This document shows positions 30,804 to 50,293 of a stretch of DNA of 64,000 nucleotides, one piece after another. The position numbers were made by a program, and so were the translations under genes. The notes beneath the pieces were generated by a model, which saw only the letters and a program-made list of their open reading frames with translations, did no database searches and had not been told where the DNA came from. The stretch comes from Methylopila sp. Yamaguchi (GTDB taxonomy: Bacteria; Pseudomonadota; Alphaproteobacteria; Rhizobiales; Methylopilaceae): assembly GCF_002897035.1 (NCBI RefSeq), contig NZ_BAUX01000020.1:1-64000 (forward strand), read 5' to 3'. Within the stretch, counting starts at the first letter, position 1. Each line of letters starts with the position of its first letter.

Positions 30804-30878
30804 TTGATCGGGTGCTGGACGCATGCTTCAATCCAGTCAATATTGCAGGCGACGCTCCTCTGAGAATTGCGACGGCCG

Positions 30879-34146: not shown

Positions 34147-34962
34147 TTACTTCAGCTTGCTGAAGGACGTGTCGAACGACAGGCTCGCCATGTAGCGGTC
34201 GCCGCACGAGTTGAACTGACCGATGAAGGTGGCGCACTCGCGACGCGACAGGTTGCTGTCGGTGTAGCGCAGGTCTAGCGTCATCGCCTTGTAGGTGAAG
34301 CCGATGCCGGCGTTCCAGAAGGTGTAGTCCGGAATGATCGGCGACTTGATCCAGAACTTGCCGACTTCGGCCGAGACGTAGGCGCCGACGTCCGGGATCG
34401 GCATCAGCGACGACGGGATCGAGTACTTGGCGAACAGCGAGCTGTGGGTGCTGTCGTTGCCGATGTTCACGAAATCGCTCGTCCAGTAGACGTTGGCGCC
34501 GACCGAGAAGTCGGCGGTCAGGGCGTACTTCGCGATGCCGTAGATCTTCCAGAAGTCGAGGGAGCGCGTGCCGTTGATCTGGCCGACGTAGTCGATGTAG
34601 AGGAAGCCGGCGTCGAGGGTCAGGGCGTCGAAGGTGTGACGCACGCCGCCGTAGTAGTCGAGCTCCGCCGTGGGGTCAGCGCCGCCGAAATTGACGTTCG
34701 ACGCCCAGAAGCCGGCGTAGACCCAATCGAACGCCGAGACTTCGACATAGCCCTGCACAGCCGGATCGCCCTTGCTCTGGCTGACGCTGCGGAGGTTGTA
34801 CTCGGTGGCGAACTTCACGCCGAACGAGACGTCGATCGGAGACATCGTCTCGACGACAAAGGCTTCGGGAGCGGCGAGATCCGCGGCCATGGCGGCGTCG
34901 CTCAGCGGCAGAGCCGCGGCGCCGACGAGCGCGGCGCAGGCGAGTTTCAAAGCGTAAGACAT
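34147..34962 (-). CDS. TorF-family putative outer-membrane porin
   Basis: A 271-residue β-barrel candidate. The signal peptide has a hydrophobic core ALKLACAALVGAAALPL and probable cleavage after AMA (residue 26). The mature part has alternating aromatic strands, starting with DVSFGVKFATEYNLRSVSQSKGDPAVQGYVE, which is the Gcw_chp/TorF signature (YNLRGVSQS type). A CATCTAGATG box about 50 bases upstream is shared with the amide importer, so it may be the outer-membrane channel for amides or urea (inference). Confidence 0.85.
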   Translation of the reverse strand: MSYALKLACAALVGAAALPLSDAAMAADLAAPEAFVVETMSPIDVSFGVKFATEYNLRSVSQSKGDPAVQGYVEVSAFDWVYAGFWASNVNFGGADPTAELDYYGGVRHTFDALTLDAGFLYIDYVGQINGTRSLDFWKIYGIAKYALTADFSVGANVYWTSDFVNIGNDSTHSSLFAKYSIPSSLMPIPDVGAYVSAEVGKFWIKSPIIPDYTFWNAGIGFTYKAMTLDLRYTDSNLSRRECATFIGQFNSCGDRYMASLSFDTSFSKLK

Positions 34963-35212
34963 TCCCGAAGGTCCCCGTCAGACAATTCTGATGAGCCATC
35001 TAAGCTTCATCTAGATGTCATCGCTAGGGCCGAAATGCTGCGGTGGCGAATAAGATAAGCAAGTGTTGCGCGAATGCAGCACTTGGTTTCGCAGATTAAA
35101 GGATTAGAAAGGCATAGGATTGCGCGACGAGACGCCGCACGTTGCTGATGATGATCAGATTAAAACTATGCGAGGGCGCCGCAGCAAAAGGCAGTTCGGC
35201 TAGATGAAATGA
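34963..35212. other. 250-bp AT-richer upstream region of the porin gene
   Basis: This gap holds the CATCTAGATG box (35008-35017), a partial CATCTA copy at 34998-35003, GCTAGGG at 35022-35028 (also seen beside the box upstream of urtA), and a CTAGATG half-site at 35200-35206. No gene is seen. The 98-residue orphan gene ends just to the right at 35213. Confidence 0.5.
35008..35017. promoter_or_regulatory. CATCTAGATG box upstream of the porin gene
   Basis: A perfect 10-bp palindrome containing CTAG, a tetramer that is rare in most bacterial genomes. The identical 10-mer occurs upstream of urtA and a 9/10 variant upstream of the gene at 45802-46167. It is a probable operator of one regulon. Confidence 0.6.
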
Positions 35213-35509
35213 TCAAACAAGCGGCAGCTCGCTGCGCTTGAACAGAAAGACGCTTGAGCCGGCGGTCGTGCTTGGGGCGGTCGGGACGTGCAGCTGTTCC
35301 GTCAGATACCGGAACACGATGCGCGCGGCCGCGGCCGATAGCGTCGGCTTCCAGAGCCAGATGTCGCGCTCCTGGTCCACTGCGTTCTCGTCGAACAGCG
35401 CCGCCGTCGCGTCCTCCGCGCAGCCAACGCGCCACTCGCTTGGATTTCCGCCGAATTCCTTGATGTAGCTGAGGAATTCGAACTTGACCTGCTGGGGGCT
35501 GAACACCAT
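35213..35509 (-). CDS. Orphan 98-aa protein in the formamidase operon
   Basis: I do not recognise this protein. It has 98 residues and begins MVFSPQQVKFEFLSYIKEFG. It is rich in aromatic residues in the first half, with WLWKPTLSAAAARIVFRYLTEQL as a probable helical middle. No signal peptide, membrane segment or cysteine pattern is seen. The ATG is 5 bases after the stop of the Sel1-repeat gene, so it is translated as the last gene of the dmf-type operon. Confidence 0.6.
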   Translation of the reverse strand: MVFSPQQVKFEFLSYIKEFGGNPSEWRVGCAEDATAALFDENAVDQERDIWLWKPTLSAAAARIVFRYLTEQLHVPTAPSTTAGSSVFLFKRSELPLV

Positions 35510-35514
35510 CGCCG

Positions 35515-36213
35515 TCAGCCTGGCATCGGGTTGAGGCGGGCGTGCCGGGAGGTCTCGGCCGTGCGCGAGCGCCAGCGCTCGACGCCGGCGGCGCCCTCGC
35601 GCTTCTCGTCGGCGGACATCTGGCTGGCGATCGCCTCCAGGGCGTTGAGGGCGGAGCCGACCCCGTGCTGGGCCGCAAGCGAAAGCCAGACATAGGCCTG
35701 CGCCCGGTTCTTCTCGACGCCGATACCGTTGGCGTACAGGAAGCCAAGACGCGCCTGCGACGGATAATGGCCGGCCTCAGCCGCCGCACGATACCAGCGC
35801 GCCGCCTCGGCGGGATCGAGCCCGACGCCCTCTCCCTTCGAGCAGAGGGTCGCGAGATTGTACTGCGCGAACACGTCGCCCTGTTCGGCGGCGCGCCGCA
35901 GCCAGGCGGCGCCGGCGGGGACGTCGGTCGCGACGCCCTGTCCCATCGCCAGCATGGCGCCGACGTTGGTCTGCGCCAGCGGATTGCCCGCCTCGGCGCC
36001 TTCGAGGTAGAGGGCGAAGGCTTTCGTCAGCGAGGCGGGCACGCCCTCGCCATGGGCGTATATTGCGCCCAGCCACGTCTTGGCCTCCGCGTCGCCGGCC
36101 TCGGCGAGGCTCGAGAATTGCGCGAAGGCGTCCTTGAAGTCGCCGCGCTTGTAGGCCGACACTGCGGCGCCGATCACCGTGGCGTCGTCGACCGGGATCT
36201 GAAGGGAAAGCAT
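35515..36213 (-). CDS. Sel1-repeat (SLR/TPR-like) protein
   Basis: A 232-residue soluble protein with four consecutive Sel1-like repeats, for example AKTWLGAIYAHGEGVPASL, AQTNVGAMLAMGQGVATDV and AQYNLATLCSKGEGVGLDP, followed by ARLGFLYANGIGVEKNR. There is no signal peptide, so it is probably a cytosolic scaffold. The ATG lies 4 bases after the Rieske-like gene, within the dmf-type operon. Sel1 proteins usually mediate protein-protein contacts, so a role in assembling the formamidase or the Rieske-like partner is possible. Confidence 0.85.
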   Translation of the reverse strand: MLSLQIPVDDATVIGAAVSAYKRGDFKDAFAQFSSLAEAGDAEAKTWLGAIYAHGEGVPASLTKAFALYLEGAEAGNPLAQTNVGAMLAMGQGVATDVPAGAAWLRRAAEQGDVFAQYNLATLCSKGEGVGLDPAEAARWYRAAAEAGHYPSQARLGFLYANGIGVEKNRAQAYVWLSLAAQHGVGSALNALEAIASQMSADEKREGAAGVERWRSRTAETSRHARLNPMPG

Positions 36214-36217
36214 CGGG

Positions 36218-37309
36218 TCAGCCTCTCGGGTTCTGGAACAAGGGCTGGGGAAGGTCGTCCCGCGGCGCCCGCGCCACGCGCTCCGCGAGCGCGCGCTGCA
36301 TCCAGACGCCGTGAGGTTCGGACTGGCGGGGGAGCGGTCCTCCGATGGTCTCGGGCCGGAACTGCGTGCCCCAGCGCGACAACGCGAGATGCTCCTCAGC
36401 GGCCTCGCCGGCGCGGCGGTCGATCTCGGCGCGCCAGAAGCCTGCGCTCGTCGCCGAGCCCTCGCCATAGACCGAGACCCGGCACAGCGTCTGTCCGATC
36501 GCGGTCGGCTGGAGGACGACGACGCAGGTTTCGTCAGCGGTGGCGAACAGCACGAGGTTCGGGAACAGCCAGGCCGCCCGCGCTTCGCGGCCATCGGCCA
36601 GGGTGGTCACGCCGAGGAGCCAGCGGTCGCCGTCGTCAAACAGCGGCTCCCCGCCGGCGAGATGCTGGCCGGCGAGCTTCCAGTTGGCGGGATGCTCGAG
36701 CCAGGCCTCCTCGGACCGGACGCTCTTGTGGTTGCCGAAGAAGTCGCCGAGTTGGTTCAGCGTGGTGAGGCTGGCTTCGGGCGAAGCGGGCGCGACGTCC
36801 AGGTTGACGAAGATCAGCGGCCCCCAGCTGCGGACGTGCGCGGTCAGCAGCCGCTCCGGACGTAAGCCGAGATACTGGTGCATCTCCGGCGCGCCCTCGC
36901 CGAGGTCGCGCGCGGGGATCGCGGGCCGGTCGCGGCTGTAGCCGCAGGAGGTGAAGGAGCACTTGGTCTTGGCGCCGGTCTGGCATTGCAGCGGAACCAT
37001 GCGGCAACCGCCATGCTGAGCCTTGTTGAAGCGCGCGGCGAGGCCGCCCTCCGTGCGCTGCACGTGGACGCCATGGGTCCCGATCGTGAAGGGCAGCAGG
37101 TCGCCGACGTGGGGGATCGCCTCATGCGCGCCGACGCAGATCCAGTCCCGCGTCCAGACCGCCTCGTCTTCGAGCAGTGTGAAGGGCAGCGACCGGAACG
37201 CCGCCGGCGGGAGCACGCGGGGCGCGTCGCCGAGGGCCTCCGCGTAGAAGGCGGAGGACGCCAGGTCGCGCCCCTCGTCGTGATAGCCGAGGTCGGGTCT
37301 GTGCGACAT
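36218..37309 (-). CDS. Rieske oxygenase α-subunit-like protein lacking iron ligands
   Basis: A 363-residue protein with the overall layout of ring-hydroxylating oxygenase α subunits: LEDEAVWTRDWICVGAHEAIPHVGD, then a Rieske-like segment, then PANWKLAGQH and WLFPNLVLFATADE. The Rieske CxH motif reads A97-Q-H99, and the CxxH motif reads C117-S-F-T120, so a Cys and a His ligand are missing. In the catalytic domain the usual ENxxEcYHxxxxH is replaced by GQHLAGGEPLFDDG, without the two facial-triad histidines. It is probably not an oxygenase; other cysteines (C102, C109, C117, C122) might bind a metal. It starts 80 bases after the dimethylformamidase-like gene. Confidence 0.8.
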   Translation of the reverse strand: MSHRPDLGYHDEGRDLASSAFYAEALGDAPRVLPPAAFRSLPFTLLEDEAVWTRDWICVGAHEAIPHVGDLLPFTIGTHGVHVQRTEGGLAARFNKAQHGGCRMVPLQCQTGAKTKCSFTSCGYSRDRPAIPARDLGEGAPEMHQYLGLRPERLLTAHVRSWGPLIFVNLDVAPASPEASLTTLNQLGDFFGNHKSVRSEEAWLEHPANWKLAGQHLAGGEPLFDDGDRWLLGVTTLADGREARAAWLFPNLVLFATADETCVVVLQPTAIGQTLCRVSVYGEGSATSAGFWRAEIDRRAGEAAEEHLALSRWGTQFRPETIGGPLPRQSEPHGVWMQRALAERVARAPRDDLPQPLFQNPRG

Positions 37310-37389
37310 GGTCCGATCCCTCATCGATCGATGGAAGTGCCGGCGCCCGCAGGGGAAGAGTGCGGGCGCCGGCGGCTGACCCCGCGCGC

Positions 37390-39786
37390 CTAGGCGCGCG
37401 ACGCCAGAGCGGGGGACTCGTAGTCGGCGCGGCCGCGGTGCTTGATCGCGTCGGCCGGCGGGGGCGGCAGGGGGCCGTCCGCCATGAAGCGGTTCAGCAC
37501 GTTGCCGACCAGAGTCGAGATGTTGTTCTTGCACTCGTTCCAGGGGAGCGAGCCGCAGAACGCGATGGAGGAGAACGAGAAGGCCGCGCCGCCGTTCGGG
37601 GTCTCGTGGTAGGCGATGTCGCCGCGCACGCGGGGATGCGTGGTGCCGTCGAGGCCCTGCTGGTTGAAGCCGAAGTCCTCCATGACGAGGAGGTAGGCCT
37701 CGGTGTGGCGGCCGGCCGAGGTCGCGACCGCGAGCGTGTGCGGAGGCGAGCCCAGCATGGTGTCGACGATGTCGAGCTCGAGGCCGGCGGCGCCGCCGCC
37801 CACGAGACCGAAATTGCCGAGCTTCTCGTCGTAGTCGATGCCCTCGAACGCCCAGGAGACGCGGGCGTCGAGGCTTTCGGAGGTGCGGCTGAAGTAGCTC
37901 GAGATGTCGAAGCCTTCCGACGACATGCCGACGCCGGCCACCGAGTGCAGATAACGGCCGCGGTAGCGCCACATGCCGCCCAGTTCGCCGGTGCCCTGGT
38001 GGTAGTACTCGCCCGGATCGGCGCGCCAGGTGCGGATGCCGCTCTCGCAGCGGCGCATCTCGGTGACGACGCCGCGGCCGAGGCCGTCGTAGGCCGGGTG
38101 GAACGAGTGCACCCAGTACCAAGCGTCCGCGCCCATATACATCAGGCGTCCGCCGCGCTGCGTGTAGTTGTGCAGGGCGTCGAGCTGCGTGCCGGAGTTA
38201 TGCTCAGGATGCGAGCCGGTGATGATGACGTTGTAGTTCTCGAGGCGGGAGATCCCGTCGTAGGTGACGTCTTCGTCGGTGATGACGTCGTACTCGTAAC
38301 CCATCGTCTCCAGCCAGTAGATCAGGTGGAGGTCTGCCGGATACTGCCAAGGCGCCTGGGCGAGGAAGTGGTCGTACTTCGGGCGGATCGACAGGATCGG
38401 GCGCAGCCGCGACGACAGGCAGATGCCCGAGCCGTCGGTATGGGTGTCGTAGATCGAGCCGCCGTACTCGCGGTGCTCCGCCAGGAACATGTTCTGGTGC
38501 TGCATGATCGGCACGCGGTAGATGAACAGCTCCGCGCCGCCGGCGTTGCAGGCCACGTGTTCGTTGGCGTAGGCCATGTAGCTGATGGTTGGCACCATCA
38601 CCGCGATCTTGGACTGTTCTTCGCCGATCTTCGGCACGATCCAGAACGGGATGTAGTCCTCGTCGCCTTCGGTCGTGGTGAGCTTCAGCGCGTAGAACCG
38701 GCTCTTGATCTCGGTCGGGACCGTCCACTCGATGTCGGCGCTCCAGCGGGCGTCGTCGACGTCGTCGTCGTGGAAGTGAATCGCGCCGTACTCCTTCGGG
38801 GCGTGTTTCCAGTCGAAGTTCTGGCCGGCCCAGTTGTAGCCGGTGAGCGCGCGCGTCGGGCAGTTCACCAGGCGGGCGTCGAACCGGTAGGGGCCGTTGT
38901 CCTTCGCGACGATGGTGTTGATGCCGTCCCAGAAGTCCCAGGCGGCGACGATGACCTCCGAGAGCGCGCCGGTCGGGCCGGAGTTGCGGCGCTCGGTGAG
39001 GCCGGGCTGGGCGCCGCCCTTCATCTGCTCGATCTCGAACCGGCTCAGCGCCTTCTTGCAGATGCGCGGGCTGTCGATCTTGCCGTTGTACTTGCCCGCA
39101 AAGACGACGCCGGCCGGAAGCGAAGACTGCGCGAGCGGGTCGTCCGAGAGCGTGTCGACATAGGCCGCGATGGCGACCGGGATGGGCGAGTGCTCAATCT
39201 TGGCCGCGACCGTCGCTTTCACCGGCTCGATGACGGGATCGAGGGCGTAGACCACCTGCGGCTCATGGTAGAGCGTCACGTCGCCGTTCGCGGCGTCGAA
39301 GGTCGCGGCGACGAAGTGCCAGGCGTGGTCGCGGATCGGCGCGCCGGTCGTGATCTTGTGCTCGTTGATGCGCAGCTCGACGAAGCCGTCCTCGTTGATG
39401 AAAAGGCCGTAGCCCTTATCCTTGGACCACTTGGTCACGAGCCCCTGGGCCCCGTGCTTCCAGTAACGCGGATGAGTCTTCGGCGTCGTCGGCCAGATCC
39501 AGCACTGCAGCGTGAAGCTTTCGACCTGGAACACCTTGGCGTCGGGGACGAAACCATAGGAGCCGCCGTGGATGATCTGCTTGCGGCCGGCGTAGGTCTT
39601 GTTGACGTCGGCCGCGATCGGCCTCTCGATGAAGCCCGGGCCGCGCGGATTGGTGTCGCCGTTGATCATCTGGACGACCTCGGCGGCGTATTCCGCTGGC
39701 CCGTCGCAGTTGACGTAGAACTTAATCTTGTCGCCGGGGTGGACGCCGAACTTGTCGGCGTAACCTGTCAGCCGCATGGCGCACAT
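37390..39786 (-). CDS. dmfA2: N,N-dimethylformamidase large (β) subunit-like
   Basis: A 798-residue protein resembling DmfA2, which hydrolyses dimethylformamide to dimethylamine and formate. The N-terminal half includes a LamG-like lectin fold (about residues 90-240; FTLQCWIWPTTP, GLVTKWSKDKGYGLFINEDG). The catalytic domain follows from about 390. By comparison with the known mononuclear iron site formed by two Tyr and one Glu, the candidates here are Y403 or Y406 (ISYMAYANEH), Y441 or Y446 (EYGGSIYDTHTDGSG) and E528 (GSHPEHNSG). I chose the ATG at 39786 (CGGAG upstream). The natural substrate may be another formamide. Confidence 0.87.
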   Translation of the reverse strand: MCAMRLTGYADKFGVHPGDKIKFYVNCDGPAEYAAEVVQMINGDTNPRGPGFIERPIAADVNKTYAGRKQIIHGGSYGFVPDAKVFQVESFTLQCWIWPTTPKTHPRYWKHGAQGLVTKWSKDKGYGLFINEDGFVELRINEHKITTGAPIRDHAWHFVAATFDAANGDVTLYHEPQVVYALDPVIEPVKATVAAKIEHSPIPVAIAAYVDTLSDDPLAQSSLPAGVVFAGKYNGKIDSPRICKKALSRFEIEQMKGGAQPGLTERRNSGPTGALSEVIVAAWDFWDGINTIVAKDNGPYRFDARLVNCPTRALTGYNWAGQNFDWKHAPKEYGAIHFHDDDVDDARWSADIEWTVPTEIKSRFYALKLTTTEGDEDYIPFWIVPKIGEEQSKIAVMVPTISYMAYANEHVACNAGGAELFIYRVPIMQHQNMFLAEHREYGGSIYDTHTDGSGICLSSRLRPILSIRPKYDHFLAQAPWQYPADLHLIYWLETMGYEYDVITDEDVTYDGISRLENYNVIITGSHPEHNSGTQLDALHNYTQRGGRLMYMGADAWYWVHSFHPAYDGLGRGVVTEMRRCESGIRTWRADPGEYYHQGTGELGGMWRYRGRYLHSVAGVGMSSEGFDISSYFSRTSESLDARVSWAFEGIDYDEKLGNFGLVGGGAAGLELDIVDTMLGSPPHTLAVATSAGRHTEAYLLVMEDFGFNQQGLDGTTHPRVRGDIAYHETPNGGAAFSFSSIAFCGSLPWNECKNNISTLVGNVLNRFMADGPLPPPPADAIKHRGRADYESPALASRA

Positions 39787-39927
39787 GAATGTCGTCTCCG
39801 AGGGTATGGCGGCCGACGTCAGGCAAATCGCCGCCGTTCGCGGTCCTGGTGGGGCCGCGCGGGAGGCGCTCATGCGTGAGGCGAGCCTGAAGCGTTTGAG
39901 AGGTTCAGCGCGGGAAAGATCGGGCGG

Positions 39928-40368
39928 TCAGGTGACCGGCCAGTTGTCGTCCCTGCGCTTCCAGCCTTCGTTGAAATGTTCCGGCATGCCGGCGGTCTCG
40001 GGCAGCTCGTCCAGGCGCATCAGAAAGATGTCGTGCTGAATTTCCTGCTCGTCGGTGTAGACTTTGTCGTTTACAAACTCCGGCGGCACGCCGCGGATGC
40101 CGGACAGACGGCCGATGCGCCATTCGGCGTCGACCTTCGTGCAGATCACGATCAGCTTGCCCTTCGTCGATTCGCCCCGCATGCGCAGCAGCACGCGCTT
40201 CAGGACCGGATCCTCATGAACGCCGCCGGTGACCACGGTGGTGTCGCCGGGGGTCTCACACTTCAGCACCGAGAAGCCCGCGACGCCCTTCATGGAGTCG
40301 ACGCATTCCTTGTGCTCCTTGATCAGAGCTTCGCGTTCAGGCGTACCCTTCTTCGGGATCGGAATCAT
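39928..40368 (-). CDS. dmfA1: N,N-dimethylformamidase small (α) subunit-like
   Basis: A 146-residue protein upstream of the large subunit gene in the same operon (141-bp gap). Its C-terminal part, EWRIGRLSGIRG then DKVYTDEQEIQHDIFLMRLD, follows the pattern I recall for DmfA1 small subunits (…TEEEAMHAVFLRRIED…). It also aligns without gaps over about 65 residues with the product of the gene at 45802-46167. The N-terminal 50 residues are divergent. It has no signal peptide. It probably packs on the large subunit as in the α2β2 enzyme. Confidence 0.72.
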   Translation of the reverse strand: MIPIPKKGTPEREALIKEHKECVDSMKGVAGFSVLKCETPGDTTVVTGGVHEDPVLKRVLLRMRGESTKGKLIVICTKVDAEWRIGRLSGIRGVPPEFVNDKVYTDEQEIQHDIFLMRLDELPETAGMPEHFNEGWKRRDDNWPVT

Positions 40369-40412
40369 GGCAGTCCTCCCAAGGCGTAGTCATGAAGAAG
40401 CTGAGCCCGCCG

Positions 40413-40425
40413 CAATAAACGTTGC
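40413..40425. promoter_or_regulatory. GCAATAAACGT element in the dmf-type promoter region
   Basis: GCAATAAACGT recurs identically in the σ54-like site upstream of urtB. Here, read on the minus strand, it is CGCAACGTTTATTGCGG: the -12 TTGC is present but the -24 GG is not. It is therefore at best a weak σ54 site, or a second shared binding motif. Confidence 0.3.
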
Positions 40426-40527
40426 GGAAGGACACTAGATCGGCAGGAAGAATGTCGTTGTCCCGCCGGTGATGACTTGCCGAAACTAAACCAATTCCAG
40501 CTTGGGCGCAATCAAATTGGACGATAC

Positions 40528-40560
40528 GTCTAGATGTTTATTCGCGCTGAAGTCTAGATG
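40528..40560. promoter_or_regulatory. Two GTCTAGATG direct repeats upstream of the dmf-type operon
   Basis: GTCTAGATG occurs at 40528-40536 and again at 40552-40560, 24 bp apart. A CTAGAT half-site is at 40435-40440. These are variants of the CATCTAGATG box of the porin and urtA promoters. The second copy includes the TAG stop codon of urtE. They sit 160-190 bases upstream of the small-subunit start. Confidence 0.5.
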
Positions 40561-41258
40561 GTCATATGGCGGTTGACCAGCTCGTCGGTCATCTCCGCAA
40601 TCGGCCCCCGGGCGACGATGCGCCCGTTGTCGACCATCAGGAAGGCGTCGCCGAGCTTGCGGGCGACCTTGATGTGCTGCTCGGTCAGGATCAGGCTGAT
40701 GCCCAGCTCCTTGTTGAGCATCTTCAGGATCTCGCCGATCTCGTTGACGATGTTGGGCTGGATGCCCTCCGTCGGCTCGTCGAGCAGCAGGATCTGCGGA
40801 CCCACGGCGAGGGCGCGCGCGATCGCGAGCTGCTGCTTCTGCCCGCCCGACAGCAGGCCGGCGCGCCGGTCCAGGTTTTCTTTCAGGTAGGGGAAGATCC
40901 TGAGGCACAGCTCGGGAATCTCGGGGGCCTTGTCCGCGCGGGCGAAGGTGCCGAGCAGGATGTTCTCCCGCACCGTGAAGTCCGAGAGAATGCCGCGGCC
41001 CTGGGGCACGTAGCCAAGCCCATAGGTGGCGCGCACGTTGGTCGGCTTGCCCGAGAGCTCCGCGCCGTTGATGCGGATCGCTCCGGTTGAGCGGTCAGTC
41101 AGCCCCATGATGGTGCGCATCAGCGTCGTCTTGCCGACGCCGTTGCGGCCCAGCACGCAGAGGCACTGCCCCTTCTCCAGCTCGAAGGACATGTCCTTCA
41201 GGATGCGAGTGGCGCCGTAGTAGGACGTGACGTTCTCGAAGTTGAGCAGCGTGGTCAT
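40554..41258 (-). CDS. urtE: Urea/short-chain amide ABC transporter ATPase, UrtE
   Basis: A 234-residue LivF-type ATPase. Walker A GRNGVGKTTLM, GLGYVPQGRGILSDFTVREN, LLSGGQKQQLAIARAL and LLLDEPTEGIQPNIVNEIG are characteristic of UrtE. The start is the ATG overlapping urtD by four bases. It energises the branched-chain-type importer with UrtD. The related FmdF acts in amide and urea uptake in Methylophilus. Confidence 0.93.
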   Translation of the reverse strand: MTTLLNFENVTSYYGATRILKDMSFELEKGQCLCVLGRNGVGKTTLMRTIMGLTDRSTGAIRINGAELSGKPTNVRATYGLGYVPQGRGILSDFTVRENILLGTFARADKAPEIPELCLRIFPYLKENLDRRAGLLSGGQKQQLAIARALAVGPQILLLDEPTEGIQPNIVNEIGEILKMLNKELGISLILTEQHIKVARKLGDAFLMVDNGRIVARGPIAEMTDELVNRHMTI

Positions 41259-42001
41259 GCCGCCTCCTGCTCGCCGAGGTAGACCTCGCGCACGCGCGCG
41301 TTCCCCTCGATCTGCTGGATCGTGCCCTGGGCGAGCAGCGATCCCATGTGCATCACCACGACCTCGTCGGCGATCTCGCGCACGAAGCCCATGTCGTGCT
41401 CGACCACGACGAGCGTGGCGGTCTTGCGCAGATCCCTGAAGATGCGGACGGTCTTCTCGATCTCGCCCTCGGTCATGCCGGCGATCGGCTCGTCCATCAG
41501 CAGCAGCCGCGGCTCCTGCATCAGCACCATGCCGATCTCCAGCCACTGGGTCTCGCCGTGCGACAGGATGCCGGCCCGGTCGTTCAGACGGCCGGTAAGG
41601 CCCGCGAGGGTCGCGATCTCGTCGAGCTTCTGCTTGAGGCCCGCGACGCGGAACTTGAACAGGTTCCAGAACGGATTGGTCTGCCGGCTGTAGGCGACCT
41701 CGAGGTTCTGACGCACGGTCATGTCGCGCAGCACCGCCGGCACCTGGAACTTCCGGCCGATGCCGGAGCGGGCGATGATGTGCTCGTGCTTCGCCGTGAT
41801 GTCTTCGTTCGCGAACACGATCTTTCCCGAGGTGGGTTTGATGCGGCCGGTGATGAGGTCCATCGTCGTGGTCTTGCCCGCGCCGTTGGGACCCACCAGG
41901 CAACAGAGCGTCCCCTCGGTGACCTCCATGCTGAAGTCGTTGATGACCTTGGTGGTGTCGAAGCTCTTCGACAGATTGTGGATTTCCAGAAGGCCTGGCA
42001 T
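41255..42001 (-). CDS. urtD: Urea/amide ABC transporter ATPase, UrtD
   Basis: A 248-residue LivG-type ATPase. Walker A GPNGAGKTTTMDLITG and LSHGETQWLEIGMVLMQEP, with the unusual SHGE in place of SGGQ, are hallmarks of UrtD. Walker B is LLLMDEPIAGMTEGE, and VVVEHDMGFVREIAD holds the H-loop. It lies 8 bases after urtC. Confidence 0.94.
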   Translation of the reverse strand: MPGLLEIHNLSKSFDTTKVINDFSMEVTEGTLCCLVGPNGAGKTTTMDLITGRIKPTSGKIVFANEDITAKHEHIIARSGIGRKFQVPAVLRDMTVRQNLEVAYSRQTNPFWNLFKFRVAGLKQKLDEIATLAGLTGRLNDRAGILSHGETQWLEIGMVLMQEPRLLLMDEPIAGMTEGEIEKTVRIFRDLRKTATLVVVEHDMGFVREIADEVVVMHMGSLLAQGTIQQIEGNARVREVYLGEQEAA

Positions 42002-42009
42002 CGCCGCCC

Positions 42010-43113
42010 TTACTCCGCGGGAATGGGTTTGGCGTCGCCGTTCGGCTCGGCCGAGGCCGGTCCGCGCTTGGTCGCGAACAGACCGAGGCCGGATTCGACC
42101 AGGCTCGCGAGCCCGTTCGGCAGGAACCGCACGACGACGATGAAGAAGCCGCCGAGGATCAGGAGCCAGGTGGCGAGGAAGGCGTCGCCGAGGTAGCTCT
42201 GGGCGCCCTGGATGATGAAGGCGCCGATGATGGACCCCAGCAGCGAGTAGCGCCCGCCGATCGCCGCCCAGATCACCATGGAGAGGCTGAAGCCGACGTC
42301 GAGCTGGGCCGGCGAGACGTATTGCACGAGCATCACCCAGCAGCAGCCGGCGACGGCCGCGATCAGTCCGGAGACGGTGTAGATCACCGTCTCGTAGCCC
42401 GCGACGCTGTAGCCAAGGAAGCGCACGCGCTCGCTGTCGTCACGGATCGCCTGCGTCACGAGCCCGAACGAGCTCTGCGTGATCAGCTTGGCGAGCACGG
42501 TGGCGCCGAGCAGGAAGCTGAACACCACCCAATAAGCGGTGGGGCTGTAGGGATCGACCTCGAAGCCCGCGAACTGCAGCGAGGAGGGCGGCGTCAGGCC
42601 GTTAACGCCGCCGGTGTAAGGCTGGCGGTCGATGATGATGGTGTAGAAGGCGGAGAGCATCGCGAGCGTCATGATCGCGAAGAACGGGCCGGAGACGCGC
42701 GCCCGGAACATGATGCCGCCGAAGACCGCGCAGAACAGCGTGGGCGCCGCGACCGCGAGGATCATGCCGATATAGGTGTTCTGGAACGGCTGCCAGAGCA
42801 TCGGCAGGTGGTCCAGGCTGTTGTTCAGCATGAACGGCGGGATCGGATTGGACTCGTCCTGGGTCTGCATCTGCATGGTCATCGCCATGCCGTACGCGCC
42901 CAGTCCGAAGGCGATGCCCTGGCCGAGGTTCAGGATGCCGCCGAAGCCCCAGCAGAGGCTGATCGACAGCGCCAGCATCCCGTAGACGCCGTAGGTGGCG
43001 AGCTGGTTCAGCAGGAAGCTGTCGTCGACGGTCATCGGGATGACGGCCAAGCCCGCGAAGAAAGCGGCGTAGACCAGCCACTGCGCCGTCTTGTTGTGGT
43101 AGAGATTTCCCAT
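42010..43113 (-). CDS. urtC: Urea/amide ABC transporter permease, UrtC
   Basis: A 367-residue LivM-type permease with hydrophobic segments throughout. LALSISLCWGFGGILNLGQGIAFGLGAYG and GVNGLTPPSSL are typical of UrtC. The C-terminal tail is short, polar and cytosolic. It forms the translocation path with UrtB and starts 45 bp after it. Confidence 0.93.
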   Translation of the reverse strand: MGNLYHNKTAQWLVYAAFFAGLAVIPMTVDDSFLLNQLATYGVYGMLALSISLCWGFGGILNLGQGIAFGLGAYGMAMTMQMQTQDESNPIPPFMLNNSLDHLPMLWQPFQNTYIGMILAVAAPTLFCAVFGGIMFRARVSGPFFAIMTLAMLSAFYTIIIDRQPYTGGVNGLTPPSSLQFAGFEVDPYSPTAYWVVFSFLLGATVLAKLITQSSFGLVTQAIRDDSERVRFLGYSVAGYETVIYTVSGLIAAVAGCCWVMLVQYVSPAQLDVGFSLSMVIWAAIGGRYSLLGSIIGAFIIQGAQSYLGDAFLATWLLILGGFFIVVVRFLPNGLASLVESGLGLFATKRGPASAEPNGDAKPIPAE

Positions 43114-43158
43114 GGTCTCAGAGCGATCCCGCGGTGACGTTGCTGATGGAGTGCGCGC

Positions 43159-44034
43159 TCATCGGCGCGCGCCGGCCTGGGCGAAGAGGCCTTGCGGCCG
43201 GAACCGCAGGAACACCACGATCAGCACGAAGATGATGAAGCGGGCGAAGGTGTCGTTGGTGAAGAAGGCGAACACGGACTGCATCTCGCCTGTGACGCCG
43301 CTCGCCACCACGCTTCCGGCCAGTGAGCCGCCGCCGACCACGACCATGAGGAACGCCTGCACCACGTAGCTCGCCCCCATGGTCGGCAACACGATGGCGA
43401 GCACGCCGAACAGCGCGCCCGCCACGCCCGCGAGGCCTGCGCCGAGCGCGAAGGTCATCATGTAGATGCGGCCGGAGTTGATGCCGAAGGAGGCGGCCAT
43501 CTCCTTGTTCTGCATCACTGCGCGGACCTGCACGCCGAACCGCGTCTTGTAGAACAGCAGCCAGAGCGCGAAGACCAGCAGCGCGGTCACGCCGAGCACG
43601 ACGATGCGGAAGGTCGAGATCGACGCGGAGCCGAGCATCACGTTGCTCTGGAAGATCTCAGGCACCGCGAGATACTTCGGATCGCTGCCGAAGATCAGGC
43701 GGACGCCTTGCATCAGCACGAGCGACACGCCGTAGGTGGCGAGCAGAGTGTCGAGCGGGCGATTGTAGAGATAGCGGATCAGCCCGCGTTCCAGCGCGAG
43801 GCCCACCAGCGCGACGATCACGAAGGAGGCCGGCAGGCACAGCAGGTACGGCACCCCGAGATAGAACTGCAGCATGTAGGAGCTGTAGGCGCCGAGCATG
43901 ATGAACTCGCCGTGCGCCATGTTGATCACCCCGGCCGTGCCGTAAATGATCGTGAGTCCGAGCGCCGCGATCAGCCAGATGCTGGCGATGCTGACGCCCA
44001 GAATGAGCGCGTTCAGAAGCGATCCAAGATCCAT
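43159..44034 (-). CDS. urtB: Urea/amide ABC transporter permease, UrtB
   Basis: A 291-residue LivH-type permease. LTIIYGTAGVINMAHGEFIMLGAYSSYMLQ is the family signature, and YKTRFGVQVRAVMQNKEMAASFGIN is the ATPase-coupling loop. It is separated from urtA by 130 bp containing a hairpin and a σ54-like promoter, so it may be expressed both by read-through and independently. Confidence 0.93.
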   Translation of the reverse strand: MDLGSLLNALILGVSIASIWLIAALGLTIIYGTAGVINMAHGEFIMLGAYSSYMLQFYLGVPYLLCLPASFVIVALVGLALERGLIRYLYNRPLDTLLATYGVSLVLMQGVRLIFGSDPKYLAVPEIFQSNVMLGSASISTFRIVVLGVTALLVFALWLLFYKTRFGVQVRAVMQNKEMAASFGINSGRIYMMTFALGAGLAGVAGALFGVLAIVLPTMGASYVVQAFLMVVVGGGSLAGSVVASGVTGEMQSVFAFFTNDTFARFIIFVLIVVFLRFRPQGLFAQAGARR

Positions 44035-44112
44035 GACGCCTTATCCGTTCGGCCGCGTGGGGCCAATCCCAGCGCACTCGCGCCGTCGGCGAGCGCGGCG
44101 CTGATGTTGCGT

Positions 44113-44129
44113 TGCAATAAACGTGCCCC
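44113..44129 (-). promoter_or_regulatory. σ54-type promoter upstream of urtB
   Basis: On the minus strand the sequence GGGGCACGTTTATTGCA carries GG at -24 and GC at -12 with ten bases between and the full CACG and TTGCA elements; only the first T of TGGCACG is replaced. Transcription would start about 67 bases before urtB. It overlaps the foot of the urtA-urtB hairpin. Confidence 0.6.
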
Positions 44130-44151
44130 GCGGCGCTTGGGCGCCGCAGGG
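44126..44151 (-). terminator. Attenuating hairpin between urtA and urtB
   Basis: GCGGCGC (44130-44136) and GCGCCGC (44141-44147) form a 7-bp core stem with a TTGG loop, extendable by CCC/GGG pairs. There is no good U-tract. Such hairpins between a binding-protein gene and its permease gene usually protect or enrich the binding-protein transcript. Confidence 0.55.
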
Positions 44152-44164
44152 CGGAGACGTCAGG

Positions 44165-45472
44165 TCAGATGACGCTCTTGCGGATCTTGCCGTCGGGCGA
44201 CTTGAGGCCGTCCTTGGTGCAGACGCCGGCGTCGGGGTAGATCGAGTACGGGTCGGGCGCGACGTGGTTGTCGGCGGCCTTGACGATCTTGAAGGTGCCG
44301 TCCGCCTGGCACTGGCCGATCTTCGGCTTCAGCCAGCAGTTGAAGTTGTTCTCGTCGATCCAGATCAGGCCTTCCGGCGAGACGTTGTCCTCGACGCGGA
44401 CGCCGCCTGAATGATCACGGATCGCGCGCGGCGTGACGTTCTCGAAGCCCACCGCGGCCGCGGCCTTCTCAAAGCCGGCCTTGAACACGTAGGCGGAGGT
44501 GTAGGTCTCCTCCATGTTGTAGTGGGTCGTGCCGTTCTTGCCGTACTTCGACTTCAGGAAGCTCTCGACGAACTTGTTGTTGGTAGGGTTGTCGAGGGTC
44601 TGGAAGTACGGGGCCGACAGGAAGTGGCCGGCGCCGAACTCGGCGCCCATGGCGCGCGTCTCGATCTCACCGGTGGTGAGCGAGGCGATCGGCATCTTAT
44701 CGGCCTTAAAGCCTTCCTGCTTGAACTGCTTGTGGAACGCGATGTCCGACGCGCCAACCACGGTCGAGAAGATGAAGTCGGGCTTGGCTTCGCGGATCTT
44801 GTTCAGAACCGGTCCGAACTCGGAGCTACCGAGCGGGATGTACTCTTCCCCGAGCAGCTCGCCGCCGGCCTTCTGCAGCCACACCTTGGCGTTCTTGTTC
44901 GATTCCTTCGGCCACACGTAGTTCGAGCCGACGAAGAACACGCGCTTGCCGAACTGCTGGACCATGAAGGGGATCAGGTCCTGCGAGTGCTGGTTGGCGA
45001 GCGGGCCGGTGCAGATGGTGTTCTGCGTGCACTCCGCTCCCTCGTAGCAGGTCGGGTAGTAAAGCAGATGGTCGCGCTGCATGACAGTCGGCAGGATCGC
45101 CTTGCGGCTCGCCGAGGTGTAGCAGCCGAACAACGCGATGACCTTCTCGCGCAGGATGAGCTCCTTGGCCTTCTCGGAGTAGACCGCGAAGTCCGACTTG
45201 GCGTCGACGATGACCGGTTCGATCGGCACGCCGGCCACGCCGCCCGCCTTGTTGATCTCCTCGATGGCGTACTGCATCACGAGGGTCGAATCTTCTTCCG
45301 GAACCGCGAGCGAGCCGGTGAGGGAGAACAGCAGGCCGACCTTGATCGGCTCCCCCTTCTTCAGGGTCGCGCCCCAGGCCTCGCTGGCGGTCGGCAACCA
45401 AAGATGCGGCGCAGCAAGAGCGGCGGAGGCCGCTGCCGTCGTCTTCAGTAAATTACGGCGGGTGAACTGCAT
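44165..45472 (-). CDS. urtA: Urea/amide ABC transporter substrate-binding protein, UrtA
   Basis: A 435-residue periplasmic binding protein. The Tat-type signal is TRRNLLK (residues 4-10) followed by an alanine-rich hydrophobic stretch ending near SEA. IKVGLLFSLTGSLAVPEEDS, FGCYTSASRKAILP and FFVGSNYVWPKESNKNAK are characteristic of UrtA/FmdD. The ATG at 45472 fits the signal. It is the first gene of the importer and has a CATCTAGATG box about 85 bases upstream. The ligand could be urea or a short amide. Confidence 0.93.
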   Translation of the reverse strand: MQFTRRNLLKTTAAASAALAAPHLWLPTASEAWGATLKKGEPIKVGLLFSLTGSLAVPEEDSTLVMQYAIEEINKAGGVAGVPIEPVIVDAKSDFAVYSEKAKELILREKVIALFGCYTSASRKAILPTVMQRDHLLYYPTCYEGAECTQNTICTGPLANQHSQDLIPFMVQQFGKRVFFVGSNYVWPKESNKNAKVWLQKAGGELLGEEYIPLGSSEFGPVLNKIREAKPDFIFSTVVGASDIAFHKQFKQEGFKADKMPIASLTTGEIETRAMGAEFGAGHFLSAPYFQTLDNPTNNKFVESFLKSKYGKNGTTHYNMEETYTSAYVFKAGFEKAAAAVGFENVTPRAIRDHSGGVRVEDNVSPEGLIWIDENNFNCWLKPKIGQCQADGTFKIVKAADNHVAPDPYSIYPDAGVCTKDGLKSPDGKIRKSVI

Positions 45473-45801
45473 GTGGGCGGCCCTCAGGTGAAAGGCGTAA
45501 AGGCGAAAGAAAAGGCGGTCCGGCAAGGCGCAAGCACTTGCAACTAGACTTTACATCTAGATGCTAGGGTCGGGCATCAGAGGTCGTCAAGGTCTTTCTT
45601 TAGAGGCATCGAAATTTCTCCATGCGATGCAGCCCGGCGCCGTTTTCATGCTCAAAGCCCGCTCTCATGCTGTGCACGGCGTCGCAAAATTGAGCGGTTT
45701 CGGCCGCGGGCTCCGGCGAGATGGCCGGCAGGGGCGGTTCGTCTGAACTGTCGGGCTACTTGCGCTGCGGGCGAGGGCGCGTCTGTGCGCGCCGACAGCC
45801 G
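45473..45801. other. 329-bp promoter region of urtA
   Basis: It holds the CATCTAGATG box, a nearby CTAGACT and the CTAGGG element at 45564-45569, in an AT-richer stretch at 45540-45640. No gene is seen. The right part lies after the stop of the small-subunit-like gene at 45802. Confidence 0.5.
45554..45563. promoter_or_regulatory. CATCTAGATG box upstream of urtA
   Basis: This is identical to the palindrome upstream of the porin gene and is followed directly by CTAGGG, which also accompanies the porin box. Position about -85 relative to the urtA start codon. A candidate operator for the local NarL-type regulator (inference). Confidence 0.6.
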
Positions 45802-46167
45802 TCACGTTTCAAAGAGATCCTGGACGCGGCGGAGAAACAGGCCGTGCTCGGCCTCCTCCGGCGACGCGTAGAGCCGCTCGTCGAGAGGGCGGGGCCCAAG
45901 GCCCAAGCCCCTTGCATTCTCAACGAGTCGATAGGCCTCAAATGGCTTTACGACCAGCACCGCGTAGCCGTCGGCCGCGGCCTCGCGTTGGAAATAGACC
46001 ATCAGACGTTCGAGCGCTTCGCTGCGCTGACCGGGCGGCGGCGTGCGGCGGTGCTCGTCGATCACGGCGTCGGTGACGAGGGACCGTAAAAACTCGCGCT
46101 GCTTTCGACCGTAGCGGCGGCGCTCCGGGAGGGTTCTCAGATCTCCAGCGGCGGGCTTGGGGAGCAT
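45802..46167 (-). CDS. Second N,N-dimethylformamidase small-subunit-like protein
   Basis: A 121-residue soluble protein. FEAYRLVENARG and DERLYASPEEAEHGLFLRRV near the C-terminus follow the DmfA1 pattern, and the last 70 residues align gap-free with the product of 39928-40368. The N-terminus (RRRYGRKQREFLRSL) is basic and different. No large-subunit gene accompanies it, so it may substitute in the same enzyme or serve as a binding or regulatory paralogue. A CATCTAGATA box lies about 90 bases upstream. Confidence 0.68.
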   Translation of the reverse strand: MLPKPAAGDLRTLPERRRYGRKQREFLRSLVTDAVIDEHRRTPPPGQRSEALERLMVYFQREAAADGYAVLVVKPFEAYRLVENARGLGLGPRPLDERLYASPEEAEHGLFLRRVQDLFET

Positions 46168-46588
46168 GTCGATCAGCCCAGGGGTCTGGAGAGGAGGCCC
46201 ATCGATCGCTTCCCCACAACCAGCTGCGGTCCCGCGTGATTAGAGCTAGAGGTATCATCTAGATATTTGCGAGGCTAATGCTGCGTCGATCCAGCCGTCA
46301 AGCTGTCGTCTTCGCTGAAAGCGCGGGCCGGCGACGCACTGCCGAGCACGCCGGAGTCCGTTCAATTTCGCGGATGCGGCGCCGTCGCTCTCCGCGAGCG
46401 TCGCCGTGCCGTGAGGCGGAGCCGCGTGCTGTTGGTTGGGCGAAAGCAGCGGTGGAGCGGCTTTGCTGTCCTCTTGGAAAGGTGCGGCAATCGTGACAGA
46501 AGGTTTCGATAGGCGGGCGGCGCGCGCATCGAAGCAGCGTCAGCGCTAGACGCAAACGCAGCGCCGAGAGAAACGATCGCGTGAAGGC
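46168..46588. other. 421-bp divergent region before the two-component genes
   Basis: It holds the CATCTAGATA box and an AT-rich stretch at 46240-46275. The rest is GC-rich without a recognisable gene or clear σ70/σ54 promoter. It should contain promoters for the small-subunit-like gene (leftward) and the response regulator (rightward). Confidence 0.45.
46256..46265. promoter_or_regulatory. CATCTAGATA box in the dmfA1-like / response regulator gap
   Basis: A 9/10 match to the CATCTAGATG palindrome, preceded by GCTAGAG. It could control the leftward small-subunit-like gene or give autoregulation of the rightward response regulator. Confidence 0.5.
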
Positions 46589-47290
46589 ATGAAGGTTCTC
46601 ATCGCCGACGACCATTGGGTGGTTCGACAGTCCTTGAAGCAGGTCATGCGGCGCCTGCATCAAGCGCTCGAAACCTACGAGGCCGAGACGTTCGACGAAG
46701 CGGCCGCCTTGCTGGTCGAGCACGACGACATCGATCTGATGCTGGTCGACCTCGTGATGCCCGGATTCGACGCCTTCGACGGACTGAGGCGGCTGCGCGC
46801 GAGTTTCCCGGACGTTCCCGTCGTGGTCGTGTCGGTCCACGAGGACGTGGACCATGTCCTGCGGTCGGTCGAACAGGGCGTCATCGGCTACATTCCCAAA
46901 TCGTCTGGTGGTCCGGAAATCGAACGCGCTCTCGAACGGGTGCTCGCGGGCGAGGTGAGCTTTCCGCGCAGGATCATCGAGCGCTCCGCGTCCGCCCAGC
47001 CGCCGGCGGTGCGGGCTCCGGCCTCGGCCGAGGCGACGACCGCCGCGGCCGTCGCGATCGATCCAGCGCGCGATCTCGACGCGCTCACCGCGCGCGAGCG
47101 GGGCGTTCTCAGCCTGCTGGGGCGTGGCTATTCGGTGAAACGGATCGCCGAGGAACTGGAGCTCAGCAGCCAGACCGTCCGCGTCCACCTCGGCAACGCC
47201 ATGCGGAAGCTGAACATCCGCGATCGTTCCGCCGCGGTGCATTACGCCATCAGCCGGTTCGGCGCCGCGGCGACCGCAGGACGTGGCTGA
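46589..47290 (+). CDS. NarL/LuxR-family response regulator
   Basis: A 233-residue regulator. The receiver domain is residues 1-120, with acidic pair D7/D8, phosphoacceptor D54 (MLVDLVMPG) and K104 (GYIPKSS). The LuxR-type helix-turn-helix is LTARERGVLSLLGRGYSVKRIAEELELSSQTVRVHLGNAMRKL at about 170-215. It overlaps the kinase gene by 8 bases, so the two form a cognate pair. It is the best local candidate to bind the CATCTAGATG boxes, though NarL-type sites are usually looser heptamers. Confidence 0.9.
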   Translation: MKVLIADDHWVVRQSLKQVMRRLHQALETYEAETFDEAAALLVEHDDIDLMLVDLVMPGFDAFDGLRRLRASFPDVPVVVVSVHEDVDHVLRSVEQGVIGYIPKSSGGPEIERALERVLAGEVSFPRRIIERSASAQPPAVRAPASAEATTAAAVAIDPARDLDALTARERGVLSLLGRGYSVKRIAEELELSSQTVRVHLGNAMRKLNIRDRSAAVHYAISRFGAAATAGRG

Positions 47291-50134: not shown

Positions 50135-50293
50135 CCCCGCAAAGGCTTGAAGCCCGCGCGGTTTCGGGCGTTAATCGGGTCAAGGCGTCGCGACAGGATC
50201 GTCGCGGCGCGTCTCCGGCAAAGGCGCCGGGCGGCAGGCGTCGCAACGACCGCCGCGCATCCCGCGCTTTTCCCAGACAATCCGGAGACCGCC
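50135..50293. other. Gap before the NorQ-type gene
   Basis: 159 bp without a gene or clear promoter. The frame open through it is a continuation of arginine-rich sequence upstream of the ATPase start and shows no conserved motif. Confidence 0.4.

What the first reader, a model, noticed from the sequence alone, without database searches (positions are those of the whole stretch)
34998..46265. CATCTAGATG palindrome shared by porin, urtA, dmf-type and second small-subunit promoters
The exact 10-mer CATCTAGATG is at 35008-35017 and 45554-45563. A 9/10 copy is at 46256-46265, and two GTCTAGATG copies 24 bp apart are at 40528 and 40552. Each lies upstream of a gene of the amide/formamide module, and porin and urtA also share GCTAGGG close by. 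CTAG is a rare tetramer in most bacterial genomes, so this repetition is unlikely by chance. I noticed no CATCTAG elsewhere in the window by eye. It looks like the operator of one undescribed regulon for amide uptake and hydrolysis. The nearest DNA-binding candidate is the NarL-type regulator at 46589.
Basis: partly seen in the sequence, partly recalled or inferred. Interest (0 to 1): 0.78.

Follow-up and report, generated by a model that had tools for sequence, protein, structure and literature searches.

The report
CTAG operators of an amide-use regulator
A rare DNA signature built from two CTAG blocks marks control regions of a bacterial gene cluster for taking up and breaking down amide-like compounds, and it largely comes and goes across species together with one neighbouring regulator gene, which is therefore its most likely reader.

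Summary
CATCTAGATG occurs exactly twice in the 4.42-Mb genome, both times here. The 10-mer is only a half-site, however. The conserved unit is a 17-bp inverted repeat, CTAGAY-N5-RTCTAG, that is, two CTAGs 13 bp apart. It lies upstream of porin-like, urtA and S2; dmfS has two CTAGs 24 bp apart instead. CTAG-N9-CTAG is present at 19 of 21 DMFase loci with an ortholog of the response regulator at 46589, and at 2 of 68 counted as lacking it; three of those 68 genomes proved to carry the regulator outside the fetched stretch. In the bacterial family the exact consensus is at this locus in 8 of 8 regulator-bearing genomes and nowhere in 5 of 5 same-genus genomes without it. Position suggests two modes: at dmfS a CTAG sits 22 bp before the -35 (activation); at urtA it abuts the -10 (repression or tuning). 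The regulator is encoded with a soluble hybrid kinase and a binding protein without signal peptide, suggesting cytosolic sensing. Closest described system: CrbS/R (ErdR). A new, local variant.

The parts
35011..35027 (.). Operator at the porin-like gene: CTAGATGTCATCGCTAG, with CATCTAGATG at 35008-35017 around its left half. CTAGs start 65 and 52 bp upstream of the start codon (34962, - strand)
   Evidence: N9 pair at the same promoter in L041, L043, L044, L045, L046, L047, L068
45544..45567 (.). Operator at urtA: CTAGACTTTACATCTAG plus a third CTAG at 45564. CTAGs start 95, 88 and 75 bp upstream of the start codon (45472, - strand). The only site of this genome that fits the exact consensus
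45585..45590 (-). Putative urtA -35 (TTGACG). The middle CTAG begins 30 bp further on, directly after a -10-like TAGCAT
   Evidence: CTAG at +29 to +31 in 14 of 19 regulator-bearing loci with a readable urtA promoter
46246..46262 (.). Operator at S2: CTAGAGGTATCATCTAG, 79-95 bp upstream of its start (46167, - strand)
   Evidence: S2 operator also in L041 and L043, not before the S2-like gene of L044
46296..46301 (-). Putative S2 -35 (TTGACG), upstream of the operator
   Evidence: read by eye
40530..40557 (.). Two RTCTAGAY half-sites 24 bp apart upstream of dmfS (start 40368, - strand). The distal one overlaps the urtE stop codon
   Evidence: not an N9 pair in this genome
40506..40511 (-). Putative dmfS -35 (TTGCGC). 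The proximal CTAG (40530) begins 22 bp upstream of it
   Evidence: same -22 register in 13 of 21 regulator-bearing loci (TTGCGC was added to the pattern after inspection; it serves this genome, L041 and L043)
46589..47290 (+). Response regulator, receiver + GerE/LuxR HTH (NarL/FixJ type); proposed operator-binding protein
47283..48833 (+). PAS-HisKA-HATPase-receiver hybrid kinase without an evident transmembrane segment, nearest to the NahK/ErcS family
48860..50134 (+). Periplasmic-binding-protein fold (Peripla_BP_6) without a signal peptide; proposed cytosolic ligand sensor
37390..39873 (-). DMFase-like large subunit (DMFA2_C)
39928..40368 (-). DMFase-like small subunit (dmfS), distant match to DmfA1 (26% over 72 aa)
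40554..45472 (-). urt-like ABC transporter: urtE 40554-41258, urtD 41255-42001, urtC 42010-43113, urtB 43159-44034, urtA 44165-45472
45802..46167 (-). S2, second small-subunit-like protein (30% to DmfA1 over 122 aa, 48% to the small subunit of the paralogous cluster in L044)
34147..34962 (-). Porin-like protein (Gcw_chp)

Best explanation
The boxes are operators of the NarL/FixJ-type response regulator encoded at 46589-47290. Its dimer is proposed to read a 17-bp inverted repeat, CTAGAY-N5-RTCTAG (two RTCTAG half-sites 13 bp apart), so the CATCTAGATG 10-mer is one half-site with symmetric flanks. Proposed working: a soluble binding protein (48860-50134) senses the amide-like substrate inside the cell and sets the activity of the soluble hybrid kinase (47283-48833), which phosphorylates the regulator. 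The regulator then controls dmfS and the genes after it, urtA-E, S2 and the porin-like gene. At dmfS the half-sites lie just upstream of the -35, as for an activator. At urtA, and probably at S2 and porin, the operator overlaps the region from the -10 to just past the start site, as for a repressor or a tuner. Shown: sequence, uniqueness, conservation, co-distribution with the regulator, promoter register. Inferred: binding, phosphorelay, ligand, and sign of regulation at each promoter.
For: Uniqueness: the exact 10-mer occurs twice in 4.42 Mb, both here. CTAG-N9-CTAG occurs 9 times genome-wide: 3 here, 2 in tRNA genes, 1 between the paralogous regulator and its ABC operon on contig C6, and 3 elsewhere without an assigned role. 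Spacing: at 21 regulator-bearing loci 32 of 82 CTAG pairs with gaps of 0-30 have gap 9, and no other gap is seen more than 7 times; at 68 loci counted as without it, 2 of 25. Co-distribution: 19 of 21 loci against 2 of 68. In the family, exact CTAGAYNNNNNRTCTAG is at the locus in 8 of 8 regulator-bearing genomes and nowhere in 5 of 5 same-genus genomes without the regulator. Natural control: Ancylobacter moscoviensis keeps the DMFase cluster (89%) and TTGAC promoters but gave no regulator hit at E<=1e-40 in its genome and has no CTAG in 22 kb, whereas A. aquaticus and A. mangrovi have both. Forward test: a regulator ortholog found by protein in Chelatococcus, at the other type of cluster, has CTAGATATTTTATCTAG beside it. 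Register: CTAG at -22 from the dmfS -35 in 13 of 21 loci; at +29 to +31 from the urtA -35 in 14 of 19, and in 0 of 13 examined loci counted as lacking the regulator. Precedent: the LuxR-type response regulator CrbR activates through a 17-bp inverted repeat just upstream of the -35 (PMC5715377, section 16 read).
Against: There is no binding or expression data. Loci are related by descent, so the Fisher p of 3.7e-15 overstates independence. Two of 21 regulator-bearing loci (L074, L151) have no N9 pair, and four lack the dmfS box (L068, L150, L151, L152). In this genome only the urtA site fits the exact consensus, and the dmfS promoter has two half-sites 24 bp apart, not an N9 pair. Of four symmetric inner positions only the one next to the CTAGs is clearly palindromic: 19 of 31 sites against 9 expected; the other three (9, 6, 9) are at or below chance. 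Among more distant or paralogous regulators, L155, L165/L169, L156 and L166 have no N9 pair. Three loci (L074, L107, L153) have the regulator but no CTAG at urtA. Three of the 68 loci counted as lacking the regulator have it outside the fetched stretch, and one more (L102) holds a 49% relative without an N9 pair. The -35 assignment at dmfS for this genome was made after looking.
Confidence: 0.85

Rival explanations
1. The boxes are real operators, but of another DNA-binding protein, for example the MocR-type GntR/aminotransferase regulator at 30867-32255 or an unlinked regulator.
For: No binding data exist; a GntR-aminotransferase protein lies about 3 kb from the porin box, and such regulators bind DNA repeats (recalled).
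Against: In the eight family loci scanned the MocR gene was seen only in L043 (some stretches end before its expected place), while N9 pairs are at 19 of 21 loci with the 46589 regulator and at 2 of 68 counted as without, many of which keep the target genes.
Confidence: 0.1
2. The 46589 regulator works in one mode only: it activates all promoters, and the apparent overlap with the urtA start region reflects a wrongly assigned promoter.
For: Promoters were assigned by eye and pattern; CrbR, the nearest described case, is an activator.
Against: TTGAC promoters at nearly the same place (-120 to -122) are kept in L076, L117 and L118, which gave no regulator hit, without the CTAG; the CTAG abuts the -10 at a nearly constant distance in 14 loci. 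No -35-like sequence was seen by eye 22 bp downstream of the urtA operator in this genome.
Confidence: 0.3
3. Chance or non-regulatory recurrence: a tRNA-like, restriction-site or insertion-site CTAG repeat.
For: Two N9 pairs genome-wide are in tRNA genes; CTAG-rich spots exist elsewhere (C15:46022-46102).
Against: 0 of 200,000 random placements give three pairs; the same promoters in other genera carry boxes with different inner bases; rarity where the regulator is not found.
Confidence: 0.02

Closest known systems
CrbS/R (MxtR/ErdR) and its ACTU motif, Pseudomonas/Vibrio acetate use
   Same: LuxR-type response regulator with a hybrid kinase; 17-bp imperfect inverted repeat, with GAC...GTC cores in many listed sites, just upstream of the -35; motif not found in enterobacteria, which lack the system (PMC5715377, section 16 read). 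ErdR is the best NCBIfam match of 46589.
   Different: ErdR match 125 bits against a cut-off of 390. Half-site spacing differs (GAC-N4-GTC against GAY-N5-RTC), CTAG is not conserved in ACTU, the kinase is fused to an SLC5 symporter domain (abstract and passages), and the targets are acetate genes.
DmfR of Paracoccus aminophilus pAMI2 (activator of dmfA1-dmfA2)
   Same: LuxR-family activator of a DMFase operon (stated in PMC4543880, section 14 read; the 2010 primary paper is not held). Both proteins have a GerE domain.
   Different: DmfR (L157:1248-2282) has a GerE domain but no receiver-domain match and gave no BLAST hit to 46589 at E<=10; it controls the 37%-identical DMFase type; no CTAG in the 250 bp upstream of dmfR shown.
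AmiC/AmiR amide sensing (recalled, no call)
   Same: A binding-protein fold used inside the cell as an amide sensor for an amidase locus.
   Different: AmiC was not among the 14 PDB matches at E<=1e-3 (its entry codes recalled); here the partners are a kinase and a DNA-binding regulator, not an antiterminator.
NosP-NahK and YiaY with its hybrid kinase (sensor protein + hybrid kinase pairs)
   Same: A separate sensor protein is described or proposed to act on a hybrid kinase of the NahK/ErcS kind (passages of PMC12997753); the kinase here is nearest to that family.
   Different: Score below the NCBIfam cut-off (331 against 400); the sensor here is a Peripla_BP_6 protein; different targets.
NarL (recalled)
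   Same: Same protein family (NarL structure 1a04 is the best PDB hit); a regulator that activates some promoters and represses others depending on site position (recalled).
   Different: NarL reads 7-bp heptamers (recalled), not CTAG repeats.

Membership tests
NarL/FixJ (LuxR-type) response regulators | Receiver domain plus C-terminal GerE HTH | tested here: met
   PF00072 and PF00196 above cut-off
NarL/FixJ (LuxR-type) response regulators | Binds inverted repeats of about 16-20 bp at target promoters | not testable with these tools
   17-bp repeat co-distributes with the gene; no binding data
CrbR/ErdR | Curated ErdR model score | tested here: not met
   125 bits against 390
CrbR/ErdR | ACTU motif, GAC-N4-GTC | tested here: not met
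   Sites here are GAY-N5-RTC within CTAG-N9-CTAG
NahK/ErcS hybrid kinases | Curated subfamily score (NF041832) | tested here: not met
   331 bits against 400
DmfR-type DMFase activators | Homology to DmfR, no receiver domain | tested here: not met
AmiC-type cytosolic amide sensors | Sequence similarity to AmiC | tested here: not met
   Not among 14 PDB matches at E<=1e-3
AmiC-type cytosolic amide sensors | Binding-protein fold without export signal | tested here: met
   In this genome the start lies 4 codons after an in-frame stop and the mature fold begins at once; several relatives also have a stop within 1-17 codons
N,N-dimethylformamidase | DMFA2_C large subunit with a small subunit | tested here: met
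   PF20254 299.6 bits; small subunit weakly similar to DmfA1
N,N-dimethylformamidase | Activity on DMF | not testable with these tools
   The pAMI5 ortholog (69.5%) has not been found linked to DMF use (PMC4543880)

The most novel reading that the evidence does not exclude
An undescribed, wholly soluble three-part amide sensor (binding protein, PAS hybrid kinase, NarL-type regulator), found in several genera of Hyphomicrobiales that include many methylotrophs, reads one 17-bp CTAG-N9-CTAG operator and uses its position to switch the hydrolase on while holding the transporter and porin back, so that uptake is matched to breakdown of a toxic substrate. A second, paralogous set of regulator and cluster (own contig C6, Chelatococcus, Methylocella tundrae) uses the same operator spacing.
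Probability: 0.35. Interest if true: 0.6.

Novelty: new variant of a known kind. Interest (0 to 1): 0.48.

Why it matters
It gives a testable operator, regulator and sensor set for a DMFase-like cluster found across several genera whose substrate is unknown. The operator can be used to find further targets and, through the inducer, to learn the natural substrate. The lack of CTAG pairs in relatives that keep the genes but not the regulator is a natural experiment on how operators come and go with their regulator.

Tried and rejected
The 10-mer as the unit: rejected, because one-mismatch variants are not enriched (68 against 79 control) and the conserved feature is two CTAGs 13 bp apart. Counting all genome N9 pairs as operators: rejected, because two are in tRNA genes, and a recurrent CTAGATCCACAATCTAG occurs in 7 of 18 family genomes, two of them (G001, G004) without the regulator. 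MocR at 30867 as regulator: disfavoured, because seen at only one of eight family relatives' loci (some stretches end before its expected place). DmfR as the same regulator: rejected. A literature search for this operator or regulator found none, in an open-licence library only; the DmfR primary paper is not held, so absence from print is not established. No structure prediction was run.
Full report
OBSERVATION. CTAG is strongly avoided in this window (21 seen, 73 expected). Genome-wide the 10-mer is found only at these two places. Loose variants are not enriched. The nearest named relative at the DMFase gene is Methylopila capsulata (98%, L063).

THE UNIT. Listing CTAG pairs with gaps of 0-30 in the genome gave 45 places; CTAG-N9-CTAG occurs 9 times by its own search. 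Three are in this window at porin, urtA and S2; two are in tRNA-Pro and tRNA-Lys genes; one lies between a paralogous regulator and an ABC operon on contig C6; three others (two on C15, one on C22) have no assigned role. From 20 fetched loci of 19 regulator-bearing genomes I collected 31 distinct N9 sites (L074 and L151 have none). The frequencies, symmetrised by counting both strands, give RTCTAGAY-N5-RTCTAGAY. The inner pair next to the CTAGs is complementary in 19 of 31 sites against 9 expected; the other three inner pairs (9, 6, 9 of 31) are at or below chance. In this genome only the urtA site fits that consensus exactly; porin and S2 deviate inside.

CONSERVATION AND CO-DISTRIBUTION. A DMFase-L search of the family found strong orthologs in 9 of 18 genomes including the own; the regulator (E<=1e-40) is in 8 of 18, the same set minus G002. 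G002 (82% DMFase-L) has the cluster but no regulator and no N9 pair at it, only single CTAGs such as two upstream of urtA. Exact CTAGAYNNNNNRTCTAG is at the locus in 8 of 8 regulator-bearing genomes and absent from 5 of 5 same-genus genomes without it. Outside the locus the hits are one recurrent sequence, CTAGATCCACAATCTAG, in 7 of 18 genomes including the regulator-less G001 and G004, and one site in G011 about 4 kb outside the fetched stretch. In it N9 pairs occur in 19 of 21 loci with the regulator and 2 of 68 counted as without. The 5 loci found by the regulator alone all proved to be DMFase-urt clusters, 4 of 5 with an N9 pair. A check of 12 genomes (3 known positives and 9 counted as without) showed that three of the 9 (L072, L115, L122) do carry a regulator ortholog (63-75%) outside the fetched stretch, and L119 a 52% relative. 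Of the three, Chelatococcus (L072's genome; CTAGATATTTTATCTAG) and M. tundrae (CTAGGCATTCCAACTAG, not the consensus) have an N9 pair next to the regulator, and M. silvestris does not. A. moscoviensis, Methylorubrum rhodinum, Methylobacterium J-067 and R2-1, and Methylorubrum thiocyanatum had no regulator hit and no N9 pair. L102 holds a 49% relative and no N9 pair. Of the 68, ten (these nine and G002) were checked for a regulator elsewhere in the genome; 58 were not.

PROMOTER GEOMETRY. At dmfS, a CTAG begins exactly 22 bp before the start of a -35-like hexamer in 13 of 21 regulator-bearing loci: this window, L041, L043, L044, L045, L046, L047, L067, L073, L074, L107, L149 and L153. L042 has 23. 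L065, L066 and L109 have CTAGs at -41 and +12 instead, and L068, L150, L151 and L152 show no such box. In Methylobacterium (L073, L074, L107) and L153 the upstream neighbour is the divergent regulator rather than urtE, yet the register is the same. At urtA, a CTAG begins 29-31 bp after the start of TTGACG, directly after a TAGCAT-like -10, in 14 of 19 readable loci. L068 and L150 have CTAG pairs but no TTGAC; L074, L107 and L153 have TTGACG and no CTAG. Of 13 examined loci counted as without the regulator (3 of which have it elsewhere), none has a CTAG at that place, although several keep a TTGAC promoter. This suggests activation at dmfS and repression or tuning at urtA; S2 and porin look like urtA by eye. 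Start sites are not mapped.

REGULATOR AND SENSOR. 46589 is a receiver-GerE protein, best matched by ErdR (125 bits, cut-off 390), MadR and NarL. Its recognition-helix region is much alike in the box-bearing DMFase loci (mostly SSQTVRVHLGN, with H, T and I variants); the G is replaced by R or S in L049, L155, L156 and L102, of which L049 still has an N9 pair. The kinase is PAS-HisKA-HATPase-receiver, NahK/ErcS-like, with no evident transmembrane segment by hydropathy. The binding protein of this genome begins directly with the mature fold, with no room for a signal peptide; its best PDB match is 3h5l, E 6.5e-112. Regulator, kinase and binding protein lie together in the regulator-bearing DMFase loci examined. 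A sensor protein acting on such a kinase has precedents in NosP-NahK and the proposed YiaY pair (passages of PMC12997753).

TARGET GENES. DMFase-L is an ortholog-like match of the uncharacterised pAMI5 copy of P. aminophilus (69.5%), not of the proven pAMI2 DmfA2 (37%). The pAMI5 genes have not been found linked to DMF use (PMC4543880, section 14). The substrate is therefore open; 'amide' is inference from homology.

COMPARISON. CrbR is the closest described operator logic: a 17-bp imperfect inverted repeat at -52 to -36, needed for activation, and not found with these genes in enterobacteria, which lack the system (PMC5715377 section 16). RpuR of Sinorhizobium, regulator of another two-component system of that circle, instead needs an imperfect direct repeat at -80 to -43 (PMC9100948 section 17). 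The present operator fits neither exactly. DmfR is a different protein type.

VERDICT. A real, local regulon operator, not found described in the searches named, with a strongly supported regulator and an inferred, not shown, mechanism.

Noticed in passing
window 36218-37465: The Rieske-oxygenase-like protein of the dmf operon scores only weakly (Ring_hydroxyl_A 21.7 bits, below cut-off), and by eye lacks the CxH...CxxH Rieske ligands (CRM...CGYS instead); possibly a degenerate, non-redox relative.
   Followed up: no
window 50147-53415: A CbbQ-like AAA+ ATPase and a VWA-domain protein follow the regulator triad. CbbQ is also beside it in L041, L042, L043, L046, L047 and L154, VWA in L042, L046, L047 and L154; neither was seen in L149-L153. 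Like an activase pair.
   Followed up: partly
window 45802-46167: S2 resembles the small subunit of the paralogous DMFase type (48% to the L044 copy) but has no large subunit beside it here; a large-subunit paralog lies on contig C6.
   Followed up: partly
L049 (G000:C6:22000-41999): A second regulator, kinase and binding protein set (67, 61 and 76%) with an ABC transporter and a DMFase-like gene, with CTAGCCCAGAGAGCTAG in between; the first search reported one TGA inside the matched DMFase stretch.
   Followed up: partly
G001:C1:993335, G004:C7:232216, G007:C3:674727 and others: CTAGATCCACAATCTAG occurs once in each of 7 of 18 family genomes, with or without the regulator; origin unknown.
   Followed up: no
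L157:6096-6359 (pAMI2): PLSDB lists a predicted AAK-1 beta-lactamase inside an IS3 transposase gene; probably a false prediction.
   Followed up: no
L158:5892-9308 (pAMI5): The pAMI5 DMFase-like genes also have a response regulator (32% to 46589), kinase and substrate-binding protein beside them, but no CTAG in the 205 bp upstream of the small-subunit gene.
   Followed up: partly
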